Shown here: one piece after another, positions 11,520-15,377 of the stretch | Position numbering within the stretch: the stretch's first letter is position 1 | Layout: the number at the start of each line of letters is the position of its first letter | Source: Candidatus Thorarchaeota archaeon MP11T_1 | GTDB taxonomy: Archaea; Asgardarchaeota; Thorarchaeia; Thorarchaeales; Thorarchaeaceae | Length of the DNA: 15,775 bases | Reading direction: 5' to 3' | Assembly (NCBI GenBank): GCA_002825515.1 | Contig: PJET01000140.1 | Coordinates: 1 to 15,775, forward strand | The notes under the pieces: model-generated | What the model saw: the letters and a program-made list of their open reading frames with translations, nothing else | Told to the model about the DNA's origin: nothing | Database searches by the model: none | Position numbers and translations under genes: made by a program

Positions 11520-11549
11520 GATGGTCGCCACCTGATTATTGTGAATGCG

Positions 11550-11557
11550 TATATGTA
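11550..11557 (-). promoter_or_regulatory. Possible TATA box of the LarA-like gene
   Basis: On the minus strand CATTACATATACGC is centred about 35 bases before ATG 11519. It would put the transcript start near the AGGTGG ribosome binding site, so the fit is only fair. Confidence 0.35.
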
Positions 11558-11590
11558 ATGCTTACGGTTTGTCCACAAACAACAAGATTA

Positions 11591-11604
11591 TTAGACGAGC
11601 CTAA
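11591..11604. promoter_or_regulatory. DtxR-type operator copy 1 (TTAG-N6-CTAA)
   Basis: TTAGACGAGCCTAA is an inverted repeat with TTAG/CTAA arms and a six-base centre. This is the arm pattern expected for DtxR/IdeR-family iron regulators. It is the first of three copies in the interval between the LarA-like gene and feoA. Confidence 0.7.
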
Positions 11605-11609
11605 CTTTT

Positions 11610-11623
11610 TTAGACTAGACTAA
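11610..11623. promoter_or_regulatory. DtxR-type operator copy 2 (TTAG-N6-CTAA)
   Basis: TTAGACTAGACTAA has the same arms and spacing and starts exactly 19 bases after copy 1. The T-rich stretch just before it (CTTTTTTAG) is the best TATA-like candidate for the feo operon, so occupancy would block the promoter. Confidence 0.7.
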
Positions 11624-11628
11624 GTTTC

Positions 11629-11642
11629 TTAGTTTCATCTAA
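11629..11642. promoter_or_regulatory. DtxR-type operator copy 3 (TTAG-N6-CTAA)
   Basis: TTAGTTTCATCTAA keeps both arms with a different centre and starts exactly 19 bases after copy 2. It lies about 58 bases before the feoA start. The fixed spacing with varied centres suggests cooperative binding of repressor dimers. Confidence 0.68.
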
Positions 11643-11699
11643 GAGTTGAATCACTGGCGTCAGTCACACGCTAGTCCTTGAGGCAAGAGAGGCTTGGCA

Positions 11700-12095
11700 A
11701 TGGACGAAAAAGGGACCTATACAGACCAAAATAATCACCGACTACTTATTTCAGTTAGACCTGGTAATATTTGTAAATTGGTTGGGGTTTCTAATACAAG
11801 AATGGGATTTGGGCGTCATAGACATCAAAAACATCACAGATCAATTGGTTGGTTTGGTCGATTTTTCAGACACCACGAAAATTGGGAGCAGAAGAAAAGG
11901 GAGTGGCACATGAAAGGTGAGCGCCAGATTACAAAACGTCTACTTGATCTTGGGCTCACAAAGGGTTGTACTTTCAAGGTTGTTCATGGAAGCGAAAGAG
12001 GACCTATACTTGTGGAAGTAAGGGGGACTAGAATAGCATTGGGTCATGGACTTGCTAGTAAAGTCCTTGTTGAGGTTCTGGAGGAGCATGAATGA
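11700..12095 (+). CDS. feoA: FeoA-domain protein with a His-rich insertion
   Basis: 131 residues from ATG 11700, with GAGAGG at 11687-11692 as ribosome binding site; a TTG at 11694 is too close to it. Both ends match FeoA, the small SH3-like partner of FeoB: LLISVRPGNICKLVGV (15-30), then GERQITKRLLDLGLTKGCTFKVV (73-95) and GPILVEVRGTRIALGHGLASKVLVEV (101-126). Between the first strand and the helix lies an unusual insertion of about 40 residues (35-72), rich in His, Arg and Trp (GFGRHRHQKHHR, FFRHHENW). Ordinary FeoA is about 75-90 residues, so the insertion explains the length. It may bind Fe(II) or help contact the membrane protein; this is inference. The gene opens the operon and overlaps the next by ATGA. 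Confidence 0.9.
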   Translation: MDEKGTYTDQNNHRLLISVRPGNICKLVGVSNTRMGFGRHRHQKHHRSIGWFGRFFRHHENWEQKKREWHMKGERQITKRLLDLGLTKGCTFKVVHGSERGPILVEVRGTRIALGHGLASKVLVEVLEEHE

Positions 12096-12910
12096 AAATT
12101 AGAGTTGCGTTAATAGGGAACCCCAATGTTGGCAAGTCAGTCATTTTCAACAACCTAACAGGACTTAGGCAGCATACTGGAAACTGGCCAGGAAAAACTG
12201 TTGAAATGAAACAGGGATACTTCAAGCATCATGGTGTTGAATTCGAGGTTATAGACTTACCAGGCGTGTACAGTCTTAGCGCTGTTTCGGAAGATGAGAA
12301 AATTGCTCGTTCCTTTATCGTGGACCATCGACCAGATGTAGTTGTTGACATTATCAATGCTTCTCAATTAGAGAGGAATCTCTATTTGACACTCCTTCTT
12401 ATCGAACTTCAGGTTAACCTGGTAATCGCACTCAACATGTATGATGTTGTTGAAGCAAGAGGAGACAGAATTGACATCGAAGGTCTCTCTAAATACCTTG
12501 GAGCAAATATAGTTGCAACAACAGCTACCCGGAAGGAAGGGATTGAAGAACTTAAAGACACAATTTTTGCAGCTGTGCCCCGACACTATTTTGATACTAC
12601 TGAGGAAAATGATAAAGCTGTAGATATTCATCCTGCGGGGGATATTGATGGTGGAGACCACCTGCACTATCATCCAATACATCACCATCATGGTGAATTT
12701 GAGCGTTTAGAACCTCCAAAAATCAAGTATAGTCCACGAATTGAATTGAAACTCAAACAACTTGTAACTATACTCCAAGAGGAGAAAGAGCTCCTTGATA
12801 GATTTCCACCTAGATGGTTGGCTCTCAAGGTTCTTGAGAGGGACCCAGAGATACTCACTCTGTTTGAAAATTCGCCAATCAAGGAACGTGTCTTGGAGGT
12901 TACGCTGTGA
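12092..12910 (+). CDS. feoB: FeoB G-protein domain, encoded as a separate subunit
   Basis: 272 residues. The GTPase motifs are complete: G1 GNPNVGKS (9-16), G2 near Thr36 (HTGNWPGKTVE), G3 DLPG (55-58), G4 NMYD (115-118) and G5 TATRKEG (144-150). A His-rich segment at 180-200 (HLHYHPIHHHH) links it to a helical part (210-270) resembling the GDI/helical domain of FeoB (LVTILQEEKELLDRFPPRWLALKVLE). It ends there, with no membrane segments. FeoB uses GTP binding and hydrolysis to control Fe(II) entry. The ATGA overlap with feoA and GGAGGAG before the ATG show translational coupling. The membrane half is encoded by the next gene in another frame. Confidence 0.93.
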   Translation: MKIRVALIGNPNVGKSVIFNNLTGLRQHTGNWPGKTVEMKQGYFKHHGVEFEVIDLPGVYSLSAVSEDEKIARSFIVDHRPDVVVDIINASQLERNLYLTLLLIELQVNLVIALNMYDVVEARGDRIDIEGLSKYLGANIVATTATRKEGIEELKDTIFAAVPRHYFDTTEENDKAVDIHPAGDIDGGDHLHYHPIHHHHGEFERLEPPKIKYSPRIELKLKQLVTILQEEKELLDRFPPRWLALKVLERDPEILTLFENSPIKERVLEVTL

Positions 12911-14229
12911 AGTACCTCTCAGATTCAGACTTAGAGCCTGAATTAGATGAGGAGGAGGAGCCAATCGATCCACAGATTATTCTTGCAGATGAAAGGTATG
13001 AGGTGATAGGTCAGATACTTTGTGAAATCTATGAACCTGGGAAAGGAAAATGGATTTTAAGTGACATGCTTGATAGAGTCCTGCTTCACCGATACCTTGG
13101 TCTACCAATATTCTTAGTTATAATGTGGGCTATGTTTCATTTCACATTTGAAATATCTCTAGTATTCATGGAGATGATTACGCAGTTCTTTGCCTGGATT
13201 GGAACTTATACGACTCAAATTCCTAATCCTCTATTGGCATCATTGTTGACTGATGGAATTTTAGGTGGCGTTGGATTTATTCTTACATTTATTCCGCCAA
13301 TCTTTTTCCTTTATCTGGCAATTTCCATTCTTGAAGACACAGGATACCTCTCAAGAGCCGCTTTTGTAATGGATCGGTTCATGATGAAGATGGGACTTCA
13401 TGGAAGGTCATTCATTCCACTACTCCTTGGTTTTGGATGCAGTGTGGCTGCGGTGATGGCTGCGAGAACAGTAGATGGAGAATCTAATAGACTGACAACA
13501 ATCCTTGTGAGTCCACTAATGTCATGTGCTGGCAGACTCCCAATCTATATTCTGATAGCAGGTGTCTTCTTTCCAGCGATTGCGGGGACTGTTCTATTTC
13601 TCATGTACATGCTTGGTATTGTAATGGCTATAGTCGCAGCTATTATCTTCAAGAAAACTATTCTGCGAGAAGAATCATCCTCTATGCTTATGGAACTATC
13701 ACAATATCAGATTCCAACAGCTCATGGTTCATTCAGGCATATGTGGGATAGAGGCATCTTGTTTGTACGAACTGCAGGGACGTACCTGTTGGCTGGTAGC
13801 ATCATAATGTGGGTGCTATCAACCTTTGGTCCTTCGGGATTAGGAGTACCAATCGATGAATCTTTTGCAGCGATCCTTGGTCGTTTCTTTGAGCCAGTCT
13901 TTATACCATTAGGCTTTAGTTGGCAGGTAGTCACTGGACTAATCTTTGGATTTCTTGCCAAAGAAGCAGTCATCCAATCACTGGCAATAGTCTATGCAGT
14001 TGGTGGTCTGACTCTTGAAACTGCACTCATTGCAAGTATAAACCCATTGACTGCTGTTGCTTTGATGGTTTTCGTGTTGATCTATATCCCATGTCTTGCC
14101 ACAGTTGGTGCAATAAGGAAAGAAACTGGGTCTTGGAAATGGACGGGGTTTTCCATCACATACCAACTTGTCCTTGGATACTTAGTTGCATTACTAATTG
14201 TAATCATTGGAGGGGTGTTCTTTGTATAG
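12907..14229 (+). CDS. feoB: FeoB membrane (Gate) domain, encoded as a separate subunit
   Basis: 440 residues starting at GTG 12907, which overlaps the previous TGA by four bases. GGAGGT at 12895-12900 gives it its own ribosome binding site, so this is a true start and not a frameshift scar. An acidic N-terminus (ELDEEEEP) precedes about nine hydrophobic segments with the two Gate regions and FeoB_C signatures: LGFGCSVAAVMAARTVDGE (Cys178; usually GCNVPA), LVSPLMSCAGRLPIY (Cys207), FGFLAKEAVIQSL and LIYIPCLATVGAIRKETGSWKW (Cys396). These cysteines match positions proposed to line the iron pore in FeoB. It should form the Fe(II) permease together with the separate G-protein subunit. Confidence 0.93.
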   Translation: MKYLSDSDLEPELDEEEEPIDPQIILADERYEVIGQILCEIYEPGKGKWILSDMLDRVLLHRYLGLPIFLVIMWAMFHFTFEISLVFMEMITQFFAWIGTYTTQIPNPLLASLLTDGILGGVGFILTFIPPIFFLYLAISILEDTGYLSRAAFVMDRFMMKMGLHGRSFIPLLLGFGCSVAAVMAARTVDGESNRLTTILVSPLMSCAGRLPIYILIAGVFFPAIAGTVLFLMYMLGIVMAIVAAIIFKKTILREESSSMLMELSQYQIPTAHGSFRHMWDRGILFVRTAGTYLLAGSIIMWVLSTFGPSGLGVPIDESFAAILGRFFEPVFIPLGFSWQVVTGLIFGFLAKEAVIQSLAIVYAVGGLTLETALIASINPLTAVALMVFVLIYIPCLATVGAIRKETGSWKWTGFSITYQLVLGYLVALLIVIIGGVFFV

Positions 14230-14701
14230 AAATGAAATCGACCTCCCGGAAGATGGCAGATGGCCCTCTCTACTAACGTTATTGATTGGAATCGCATACC
14301 TTAGTGTTGGAATAGTGCAACTTCTCTCAAGTCTTCATGTGATAATTCCAATTGCTGGATTCTCGAATATTGTTGGAGGATTTCTCCTAATGATTGTGGC
14401 ATCGGTCTTCTTGACTGGAGTCAAACCGCTTTCAGAGAATAATCAAGAAGGTTATGCCTTTATTGCTGTAGGCTTCATCCTCGCAGCAGTCTTATTTTGT
14501 CTTCAAATCTTAGTCATCTTAACAAATAGTCTTGGTTGGGTTCTTCGTTTTGAAGATTGGATAACGTGGAACATCTGGAACGATATAACACCATCACTCT
14601 GGATGTTCGTCTTACTGATTACTGGAACTGGTTCACTTTGGGTCGTTGGTAACATGAAAGAAAAAATCATAGGTGTAAAGAGGGAGGATTCCCAAGAATG
14701 A
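14222..14701 (+). CDS. Four-helix membrane protein of the feo operon, unknown function
   Basis: 159 residues from TTG 14222, placed by GGAGGGG at 14209-14215; it overlaps the end of the FeoB membrane gene by eight bases. Four hydrophobic helices lie at about 16-38, 41-66, 77-104 and 121-143, with a charged start (MYRNEIDLPEDGRW) and a basic/acidic tail (KEKIIGVKREDSQE). There are no clusters of His, Cys or acidic residues within the helices that would suggest a metal path. I recognise no family. Its position between feoB and the FeoC-like gene, overlapping on both sides, suggests an accessory subunit of the Feo complex, perhaps a FeoB-stabilising partner. Confidence 0.82.
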   Translation: MYRNEIDLPEDGRWPSLLTLLIGIAYLSVGIVQLLSSLHVIIPIAGFSNIVGGFLLMIVASVFLTGVKPLSENNQEGYAFIAVGFILAAVLFCLQILVILTNSLGWVLRFEDWITWNIWNDITPSLWMFVLLITGTGSLWVVGNMKEKIIGVKREDSQE

Positions 14702-14982
14702 TCAAGAGAGTGTTACAACTAATTTTGAAAGAGGGCATTCTAGACAAGAAACAGATTGCTCATCGTTTGGGTATTCAAGTTGAAACACTTGATGATATAG
14801 TTCGATTACTTGTCGAAAGAGGATTCCTTAGAACAGAAGAGAATGGTTGTGATATTGAAGCCTCCTGTTCTGGATGTCACAGTACCTCAGATTGCGAAAT
14901 GATTTCTAATACAGATCTGGTTTTCTATGTGACAGGTAAAGGGAGAGCATATGCAAACAGGGTTGGAGGTGAAAGTAGTTGA
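14698..14982 (+). CDS. FeoC-like winged-helix protein with four cysteines
   Basis: 94 residues, overlapping the previous gene by ATGA. Residues 1-46 form a winged-helix fold (VLQLILKEGILDKKQIAHRLG, VETLDDIVRLLVERGFL), as in the FeoC-like regulator family. A wing holds four cysteines, Cys51, Cys57, Cys60 and Cys66, spaced C-x5-C-x2-C-x5-C. FeoC proteins of enterobacteria bind an oxygen-sensitive iron-sulfur cluster through a similar cysteine loop and interact with FeoB. Here the cluster may report oxygen or iron state to the transporter; that is inference. Assignment as FeoC-like rests on fold pattern, cysteines and operon position. Confidence 0.8.
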   Translation: MIKRVLQLILKEGILDKKQIAHRLGIQVETLDDIVRLLVERGFLRTEENGCDIEASCSGCHSTSDCEMISNTDLVFYVTGKGRAYANRVGGESS

Positions 14983-15377
14983 GTCTACCAGAGATGGATG
15001 ATATTGAACTTACGAAAGCTCTTGAAATGTATGTGAAAGTAGCTTATGAACTAGAGGAGGAATTAGGGATTGCTACTGTTTCAGAAATGGCAGAACGGCT
15101 AGGTGTCAAAGCACCAAGCGTGACTGCAGCACTCCAGAAGCTTGATTCAATGGGTGTAGTAAAGTATCGTCGTTATCAGAATGTAAAACTTACAAAACTT
15201 GGAAAATTCGTAGCAAAGAAACTCCTCAACCGAAACAAGACTTTGATGGACTTCCTTCTTATGATTGGGGTGGATGAGGAAACTGCAACTATTGATGCTT
15301 GCGAAATTGAACATGTTGTTAATCCAATAACAATTGAGAAGCTAACAGAGTATATGAAGAAACTCTCACATGATTGA
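14979..15377 (+). CDS. DtxR-family iron-dependent repressor
   Basis: 132 residues from TTG 14979 (GGAGGT at 14965-14970, spacing 8), overlapping the previous stop by TTGA. The helix-turn-helix is TVSEMAERLGVKAPSVTAALQKLDSMG (33-59) and the dimerisation part is about 75-130; there is no SH3-like third domain. Metal site: EMYVKVAYELEEE puts Met17 where DtxR has Met10 (MntR has Asp), and DACEIEHV puts Cys108, Glu111 and His112 where DtxR has Cys102, Glu105 and His106 (MntR has Glu at the Cys position). This points to iron rather than manganese. Ligands of the second, ancillary site (His79, Glu83, His98 in DtxR) align with Asn86, Met90 and Thr104. It is the last gene of the operon and probably binds the three sites at 11591-11642. 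Confidence 0.9.
   Translation: MSLPEMDDIELTKALEMYVKVAYELEEELGIATVSEMAERLGVKAPSVTAALQKLDSMGVVKYRRYQNVKLTKLGKFVAKKLLNRNKTLMDFLLMIGVDEETATIDACEIEHVVNPITIEKLTEYMKKLSHD

What the first reader, a model, noticed from the sequence alone, without database searches (positions are those of the whole stretch)
11591..11642. Three TTAG-N6-CTAA inverted repeats at exact 19-base spacing upstream of feoA
Copies start at 11591, 11610 and 11629. The arms are identical in all three while the six-base centres differ, which argues for protein binding and not recent duplication. The match to DtxR-type palindromes and a DtxR gene at the end of the operon suggest an autoregulatory iron switch. The 19-base period (just under two helical turns) suggests repressor dimers stacked along almost the same DNA face, giving cooperative, possibly graded repression. 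The array also sits upstream of the divergent LarA-like gene, so it might affect both.
Basis: partly seen in the sequence, partly recalled or inferred. Interest (0 to 1): 0.72.

Follow-up and report, generated by a model that had tools for sequence, protein, structure and literature searches.

The report
Iron-repressor operators plus a leader RNA
In a Thorarchaeon, an Asgard archaeon, the promoter of the iron-uptake genes carries a row of likely binding sites for a DtxR-type iron repressor, an ordinary kind of switch, and the start of the same message holds a conserved RNA-like element that may add a second level of control.

Summary
Confirmed: three exact TTAG-N6-CTAA palindromes start at 11591, 11610 and 11629, upstream of feoA. 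The window is Thorarchaeal. An exact site lies upstream of 35 of 36 Thorarchaeal feoA genes examined, in one to three copies. The 19-bp period is the commonest (6 of 17 arrays) but not a rule: spacings run 15-26 bp. At feoA the first site sits on or just downstream of the TATA box. A two-domain DtxR gene usually ends the operon; in 3 of 5 genomes where it lies elsewhere it has its own site. Its metal ligands look like DtxR's. I conclude an Fe(II)-DtxR repressor array blocking the feo promoter: a known kind. The same site ends exactly 7 nt upstream of the TATA box at 21 of 30 rubrerythrin genes, an activator-like position. New: 12 nt below the array a conserved element begins: hairpin with loop CWGUCAC, then GUCC that can pair with GGAC at the start codon, then AAAGGGAC in codons 4-6. 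Codons AAA and GGG are invariant in 13 of 13 feoA genes, whereas rubrerythrin, with a similar KGT peptide, uses GGG in 1 of 30. No Rfam match. This leader RNA is the most novel part; its function is inferred.

The parts
11587..11594 (+). weak TATA-like element (ATTATTAG) overlapping operator 1 (inferred)
   Evidence: relatives have CTTATTAG or CTTATAAG at the same place. The window's own version was not caught by the TATA scan.
11591..11604 (.). operator 1, TTAGACGAGCCTAA
11610..11623 (.). operator 2, TTAGACTAGACTAA; the transcription start is expected near here (inferred)
11629..11642 (.). operator 3, TTAGTTTCATCTAA
11655..11673 (+). P1 hairpin of the leader RNA: arms 11655-11660 and 11668-11673, loop CAGTCAC 11661-11667
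   Evidence: alignment A1 of 14 leaders
11674..11677 (+). GTCC, 5' strand of proposed helix P2
11684..11696 (+). small hairpin P3 (CAAG/CTTG) holding the Shine-Dalgarno-like GAGAGG
   Evidence: register differs between species
11702..11705 (+). GGAC (last base of ATG plus codon 2), 3' strand of proposed P2
11709..11716 (+). AAAGGGAC of codons 4-6, invariant in 14 of 14; GAC 11714-11716 could pair with GTC 11663-11665 of the P1 loop
11700..12095 (+). feoA, start taken at ATG 11700
   Evidence: Pfam FeoA, conserved M-D-x-K-G-T start
12092..12910 (+). feoB, GTPase part (split gene)
12907..14229 (+). feoB, membrane gate part
14207..14701 (+). conserved protein of 164 aa without Pfam match, part of the operon in relatives
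14698..14982 (+). feoC-like winged-helix gene
14979..15377 (+). two-domain DtxR-family repressor gene

Best explanation
The array is the operator of the feo operon. When iron is plentiful, the two-domain DtxR protein encoded at the operon's end binds Fe(II), and one dimer sits on each 14-bp TTAG-N6-CTAA palindrome. The first site overlaps the TATA element and the others cover the expected start of transcription, so bound repressor keeps TBP/TFB or RNA polymerase off the promoter and lowers its own synthesis as well. Extra copies tighten or grade repression; no fixed helical period is needed. In this clade the mRNA then begins with a conserved folded leader that can bury the ribosome site and start codon of feoA, a likely second, translational checkpoint. 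Shown: sites, their conservation, their place relative to TATA-like elements, operon structure, DtxR-like metal ligands, conserved leader element. Inferred: binding by this protein, Fe(II) as the signal, repression, autoregulation, and the role of the RNA.
For: Exact sites in 35 of 36 feoA leaders of the class; TTAG-Ng-CTAA counts in those leaders: 55 for g=6, 6 in all for every other g from 0 to 14. A TATA-like hexamer lies upstream of or overlapping the start of the first site in 30 of 34 leaders scanned: 21 begin 4-10 nt before the site and 9 begin 21-31 nt before. One DtxR relative per genome at E<=1e-5 in 8 of 8 genomes checked; the gene follows feoC in 17 of 21 Thorarchaeal loci that reach beyond feoC; 3 of 5 copies not beside a feo gene have an exact site upstream. 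Met17 and Cys108 are invariant, and Glu111 and His112 conserved in at least 114, of 120 listed relatives, at the places of MntR D8, E99, E102 and H103. An IdeR dimer binds repeats 1 and 3 of TTAGGTTAGSCTAACCTAA, which has this arm spacing, and a half site binding one dimer is accepted (PMC8464063, passages). Archaeal MDR1 is a precedent for blocking RNAP recruitment (PMC2995911, passage). In 66 non-Thorarchaeal feoB loci (852 kb) 23 exact sites occur, 19 of them in 16 loci at 1.1-1.6 kb upstream of the FeoB gate, where by distance the operon begins.
Against: No binding or expression data. The window's own TATA element is weak. Two of 5 dtxR genes away from feo have no site within 200 nt. Fifty of the 66 non-Thorarchaeal loci have no exact site at the operon start (9 of the 66 do not reach 1.6 kb upstream). 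Thorarchaeia also have a longer IdeR-like DtxR whose leaders carry TTAGG-type sites, so cross-binding is possible. One feoA (G014) has no site; it is not first in its operon, and the sites there precede feoB. The protein's closest solved relatives are MntR, a Mn sensor, and some databases call relatives Mn-dependent.
Confidence: 0.85

Rival explanations
1. The array is bound by the longer, three-domain IdeR-like DtxR of the same organisms, not by the operon's two-domain protein.
For: Both site types share TTAG-N6-CTAA; IdeR-like genes have exact sites in their own leaders (3 of 3 examined).
Against: IdeR-like leaders have G at position 5 in 4 of 4 sites; feoA sites have A there in 45 of 56 and G in 3. 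The two-domain gene is usually in the feo operon (17 of 21 loci), and copies away from feo in three genomes carry the site.
Confidence: 0.1
2. The array is a Mn(II)-MntR type switch rather than an iron switch.
For: Best PDB sequence matches are MntR (E 6.7e-19); no C-terminal SH3-like domain.
Against: Met and Cys replace MntR Asp8 and Glu99, and Asn and Lys stand at His77 and Glu11, leaving a single DtxR-like site. The regulated operon is ferrous transport.
Confidence: 0.1
3. Cooperative stacking at a 19-bp period is the functional design.
For: Triple arrays at 19,19 in the window, G001, G003 and G006; 19 also in G005 and G015, and with one-mismatch partners in G012, G017 and G032, so 19 recurs outside the window's clade. 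SloR, a DtxR relative, binds three palindromes cooperatively (PMC12096823, abstract and passages).
Against: Spacing is 15, 17, 20, 22 or 26 bp in 11 of 17 arrays and many leaders have one site; the exact triple array is confined to the window's clade.
Confidence: 0.2
4. The conserved block downstream of the array is a DNA site for another regulator, or a conserved peptide, and not an RNA element.
For: The hairpin is also a DNA dyad; P2 and the loop-tail pairs hardly vary, so they show little covariation. Counting pairs changed on both sides gives 2 against 1.5 in shuffles (226 of 500), not significant.
Against: AAA 13/13 and GGG 13/13 at codons 4-5 while no other invariant Gly or Lys column of feoA uses one codon only, and GGG is 1 of 30 in the similar peptide of rubrerythrin. 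The loop-to-AUG distance is nearly fixed (s.d. 1.8 nt) while operator-to-loop varies (s.d. 6.0 nt). Covariation score 0.208 against 0.116 (0 of 500).
Confidence: 0.2

Closest known systems
DtxR/IdeR box (TTAGGTTAGSCTAACCTAA) and its half site
   Same: TTAG-N6-CTAA is the unit contacted by one dimer; iron genes; metal-dependent family of repressors (PMC8464063, passages).
   Different: Here separate non-overlapping units 15-26 bp apart, inner bases AC..GT rather than GG..CC, and a two-domain protein.
Archaeoglobus fulgidus MDR1
   Same: Archaeal metal-dependent repressor acting at the core promoter by blocking RNAP recruitment (PMC2995911 and PMC5569661, one passage each). That it autoregulates a transporter operon through several operators is recalled.
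   Different: Other lineage; operator sequence and spacing not compared here because the original paper was not seen.
SloR at S. mutans sloABC and mntH
   Same: DtxR-family regulator, three palindromes, cooperative repression of metal uptake (PMC12096823, abstract and passages).
   Different: Mn sensor with FeoA-like C-terminal domain; 6-6-6 palindromes of other sequence.
C. glutamicum DtxR as dual regulator
   Same: One DtxR described as a dual regulator (PMC1382209, title and abstract start in a search listing only); parallels the upstream site at rubrerythrin.
   Different: Bacterial; activation at Thorarchaeal rubrerythrin is only inferred from position.
Compact start-codon riboswitches such as preQ1-I and SAM-II (recalled)
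   Same: Small hairpin with a loop that may pair with a 3' tail after an A-rich stretch, near the ribosome site.
   Different: No Rfam match; ligand unknown; element reaches into codons 4-6 and carries an inserted P2/P3.

Membership tests
DtxR-family operator | palindrome with TTAG/CTAA arms spaced for one dimer (N6) | tested here: met
   gap-length control
DtxR-family operator | located in the promoter of metal-uptake genes | tested here: met
   35 of 36 feoA leaders; first site at or downstream of a TATA-like hexamer in 30 of 34
DtxR-family operator | metal-dependent binding by a DtxR protein | not testable with these tools
   needs gel shift or footprint
canonical 19-bp DtxR/IdeR box | two overlapping dimer sites offset by 5 bp | tested here: not met
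   sites are separate, 15-26 bp apart
DtxR/MntR regulator | N-terminal winged helix and metal-binding dimerisation domain | tested here: met
   PF01325 and PF02742; PDB matches to MntR, IdeR, DtxR
DtxR/MntR regulator | Fe-type primary site Met, Cys, Glu, His | tested here: met
   Met17 and Cys108 120/120; Glu111 and His112 in at least 114 of 120. Ligand identities in DtxR are recalled.
three-domain DtxR/IdeR | C-terminal SH3/FeoA-like domain | tested here: not met
   132 aa, no such domain matched
known Rfam RNA families | score above a family's gathering threshold | tested here: not met
   window 11560-11800 and 7 relative loci: none
eukaryotic iron-responsive element | CAGUGN loop and bulged C (recalled) | tested here: not met
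   loop is CWGUCAC in 14 of 14, without the G; no IRE match in the permissive Rfam scan of the window
riboswitch | specific ligand changes the fold and expression | not testable with these tools
   needs in-line probing and reporters

The most novel reading that the evidence does not exclude
The feoA leader (window 11651-11719) is a new cis-regulatory RNA of Asgard archaea: hairpin P1, helix P2 between GUCC and GGAC at the start codon, and a pseudoknot between the P1 loop and AAAGGGAC in codons 4-6. It controls FeoA translation as a riboswitch or protein-bound switch, stacked on transcriptional repression by Fe(II)-DtxR, which may itself repress feo and activate rubrerythrin by site position.
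Probability: 0.5. Interest if true: 0.8.

Novelty: new variant of a known kind. Interest (0 to 1): 0.6.

Why it matters
I found no tested iron regulator of an Asgard archaeon in the listings of my paper searches. The array gives a concrete regulator-operator pair, a motif that can be scanned in other genomes, and a clear prediction that site position (at or below TATA at feo, 7 nt above TATA at rubrerythrin) sets repression or activation. The leader RNA, if confirmed, would be a new RNA regulator in the archaeal group closest to eukaryotes, and would explain an odd conserved FeoA N-terminus as an RNA constraint rather than a protein one. The array alone would be ordinary.

Tried and rejected
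Rejected: the 19-bp period as a strict rule (spacings 15-26 bp), though 19 is the commonest value. Rejected: the array as a larA operator. Rejected, by eye only: an upstream reading frame through the leader; feoA's own frame is closed by a stop just before 11682. Rejected: the IRE as the leader hairpin (loop differs). Led nowhere: Rfam at permissive E-value gave three sub-threshold hits of no evident relevance; the first MDR1/DtxR paper search gave nothing. Searches for Asgard with riboswitch, feoB with riboswitch, leader and archaea and Thorarchaeota with iron uptake and promoter showed no report of this element in their listings. Of these I read listings only, plus passages of PMC11227280 (SECIS elements of Asgard archaea); one search listed 12 of 2,117 papers and none of the 12 held the word Thorarchaeota; subscription papers and preprints are not held. 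Another lead, TTAGACNNGTCTAA with up to one mismatch elsewhere in seven genomes, is noisy: the reversed control pattern is commoner than the pattern in every genome, so a genome hit alone means little. Of those hits I looked at the surroundings of ten loci and pursued only the rubrerythrin position. The covariance model was trained on the window and the 13 genomes it recovers, so the information lies in the absence of other strong hits, and both searches used the stricter filters. Matches at E 0.0017-0.0092 (five genomes) were not inspected and are treated as noise; one weak match in G040 (E 0.04) overlaps the start of its rubrerythrin gene. L087 is misaligned by one base in A1 and was re-registered in the script. 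Rows dropped before counts: L084 (FeoA piece at a contig edge, no leader) and L095, L096, L122, L123 (second fetches of genes already counted); L097 (cut-off gene) was left out of the codon count; L101's site crosses the start codon taken for it and so is missing.

Full report
What is there. The window encodes, left to right near the site, a LarA-like protein on the minus strand and then feoA, a feoB split in two reading frames, a 164-aa protein without Pfam match, a FeoC-like winged helix and a two-domain DtxR. The FeoB gate is up to 87% identical to Thorarchaeota loci, so the window is Thorarchaeal. No genome is held for it, and the comparisons are with relatives.

Chance. Exact TTAG-N6-CTAA is rare: in 300 shuffles of the window none had two within 30 bp, and 5000 shuffles of the intergenic region never gave two. 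Allowing one mismatch removes the signal at window level (5 seen, 6.7 expected).

Relatives. FeoA was searched in 47 genomes of the class; 36 had a match. I examined 39 leaders including the window: 36 in front of feoA (35 genes of 34 genomes, plus the window) and 3 in front of IdeR-like genes that contain a FeoA-type domain; one FeoA piece at a contig edge (L084) was dropped. Of the 39, 38 have an exact site, that is 35 of 36 feoA leaders; the exception, G014, has its sites before feoB. Sixteen of the 36 feoA leaders have two or more exact sites within 30 bp of each other (L113 has two that are 95 bp apart). With G014 that makes 17 feo arrays: 19 bp in 6 (window, G001, G003, G006, G005, G015), 15 in 3 (G007, G010, G014), 17 in 2 (G002, G004), 20 in 2 (G026, G027), 22 in 1 (G011) and 26 in 3 (G041, G043, G047). 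Counting one-mismatch partners adds 19 in G012, G017 and G032 and 17 in G008. So 19 is the commonest spacing and recurs outside the window's clade, but it is not kept. Exact triple arrays occur only in the window, G001, G003 and G006. In leaders of feoA the gap-length control gives 55 sites for N6 and 6 in total for all other gaps of 0-14. Outside Thorarchaeota, 23 exact sites fall in 66 feoB loci, 19 of them (in 16 loci) 1.1-1.6 kb upstream of the FeoB gate, where by distance the operon begins; 50 loci have none there, and 57 of the 66 reach 1.6 kb upstream.

Geometry. A list of TATA-like hexamers was sought from 40 nt before to 45 nt after the first site in 34 feoA leaders. In 30 one lies upstream of, or overlapping the start of, the site: 21 start 4-10 nt before it and 9 start 21-31 nt before it; L090 and L091 also have a hexamer downstream, and L103 a second one upstream. 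The window, L089, L098 (truncated) and L114 had none by that scan; the window reads ATTATTAG at the place where relatives read CTTATTAG. Operators thus cover TATA to the expected start site, the place where archaeal repressors act (PMC5569661, passage).

The regulator. The 132-aa protein matches PF01325 and PF02742 and, among solved structures, MntR best, then IdeR and DtxR. In 120 listed relatives of 218 found (the window's own copy included), Met17 and Cys108 are invariant and Glu111 and His112 are in at least 114. They align with MntR Asp8, Glu99, Glu102 and His103, while MntR His77 and Glu11 are replaced by Asn86 and Lys20. The remaining set is that of the DtxR primary site (recalled), which favours iron. 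One match per genome at E<=1e-5 was found in 8 of 8 genomes checked. The gene follows feoC in 17 of 21 Thorarchaeal loci that reach beyond feoC. Six matches were looked at further: the one in G012 lies beside feoC; five (G013, G019, G035, G036, G038) have no feo gene within the fetched 1.5 kb. Three of these five (G013, G019, G038) have an exact site just upstream and two (G035, G036) none within 200 nt.

A second target. Some genome-wide hits fell between a flavodiiron-like gene and a rubrerythrin-like gene in G001, G003, G006 and G008 (names by sequence likeness, recalled, not by a family search). I then searched rubrerythrin in the class: 39 of 47 genomes have it at E<=1e-40, the best 30 loci were returned and all 30 examined. 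Twenty-one have exactly one TTAG-N6-CTAA in the 250 nt before the start (17 of 26 without the four that led me there), against 3 in all for gaps 2-5 and 7-12, and in 21 of 21 it ends exactly 7 nt before CTTATTA. That is upstream of the BRE, an activator-like and fixed position, unlike feoA. The simplest reading is that iron-bound DtxR represses uptake and activates an iron protein; repression by TFB exclusion, or action of the IdeR-like paralogue, is not excluded. Nine of 30 lack the site. The window's own rubrerythrin could not be seen.

The leader RNA. Between the array and feoA 14 leaders (window plus 13 genomes) share an element whose loop lies 35-44 nt before the start codon (39 in 8 of 14), while its distance from the last operator ranges from 10 to 34 nt. 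P1 is a 6-bp hairpin with loop CWGUCAC: 78 of 84 cells pair (73 Watson-Crick, 5 G-U; 2 A-C, 3 other, 1 gap, after re-registering L087). On alignment A1, 93.6% of 140 cells of P1+P2 pair against 88.6% in shuffles and 24-40% when slid; the covariation score is 0.208 against 0.116, 0 of 500. Against: only 2 pairs change on both sides (shuffles average 1.5), P2 never does, and such shuffles do not allow for relatedness. RNAalifold does not pick P1; it picks P2 and a loop-to-tail helix between GUC and GAC of AAAGGGAC, which exclude P1 only in a pseudoknot-free fold. Single-sequence folds show P1 in 10 of 14 by my reading. The segment between, which holds the Shine-Dalgarno-like sequence, has a negative z in 14 of 14 (mean -1.4, from -0.06 to -4.7), weak support for P3.

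The strongest argument is codon choice. In 13 feoA genes codon 4 is AAA 13/13 and codon 5 GGG 13/13, whereas no other invariant or nearly invariant glycine or lysine column of the same alignment uses one codon only. Rubrerythrin in the same class begins with a similar peptide (M-x-L-K-G-T in most) and uses GGG in 1 of 30 and AAA in 9 of 30, and its 30 loci hold the loop motif in none. Among 120 listed FeoA proteins of 144 found, 111 start [M/L/V]-[D/N]-x-x-G-[T/I], with Lys4 replaced by Asn, Ile or Glu in 16, which looks like constraint on nucleotides. A covariance model found no further strong match in 47 class or 227 phylum genomes, and Rfam none. On a FeoB tree of 27 rows the element needs three gains or losses, with G019 and the G026/G027 pair apart from the main group, so it is probably old within the class and was lost, or gained, more than once.

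Interpretation. The array is a DtxR-type operator, a known kind, in a setting (Asgard, arrays of single-dimer sites with loose spacing, possible position coding) that makes it a variant. The RNA is the most novel part. It could be a riboswitch, a protein-bound element or a stability element; that it acts at translation is inferred from burial of the start codon.

Noticed in passing
L191-L220 (rubrerythrin leaders): 21 of 30 carry one TTAG-N6-CTAA ending exactly 7 nt upstream of a CTTATTA TATA box, an activator-like position.
   Followed up: partly
window 11651-11719: Conserved leader RNA reaching into feoA codons 4-6.
   Followed up: yes
window 12092-14229: feoB is split into a GTPase gene and a gate gene in overlapping frames; in L001, L005, L006 and L014 the two parts also match in different frames.
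   Followed up: partly
window 14207-14701: Conserved 164-aa protein without Pfam match between feoB and feoC in Thorarchaeota, and more weakly in Bathyarchaeota loci L016 and L017.
   Followed up: no
window 11548-11575, larA side of the intergenic region: A block like ATATGTAATG-TT-CGGTTTG recurs upstream of larA in many relatives (seen by eye), perhaps the larA promoter or another regulator's site.
   Followed up: no
L119, L120, L121: IdeR-like DtxR genes have TTAGG-type sites in their own leaders, a second operator class.
   Followed up: no
window 11700-11730 and L191-L220: FeoA's N-terminus (M-D-E-K-G-T, in several relatives followed by R-T-E) resembles that of rubrerythrin (M-x-L-K-G-T-x-T-E); shared origin or chance is open.
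   Followed up: partly
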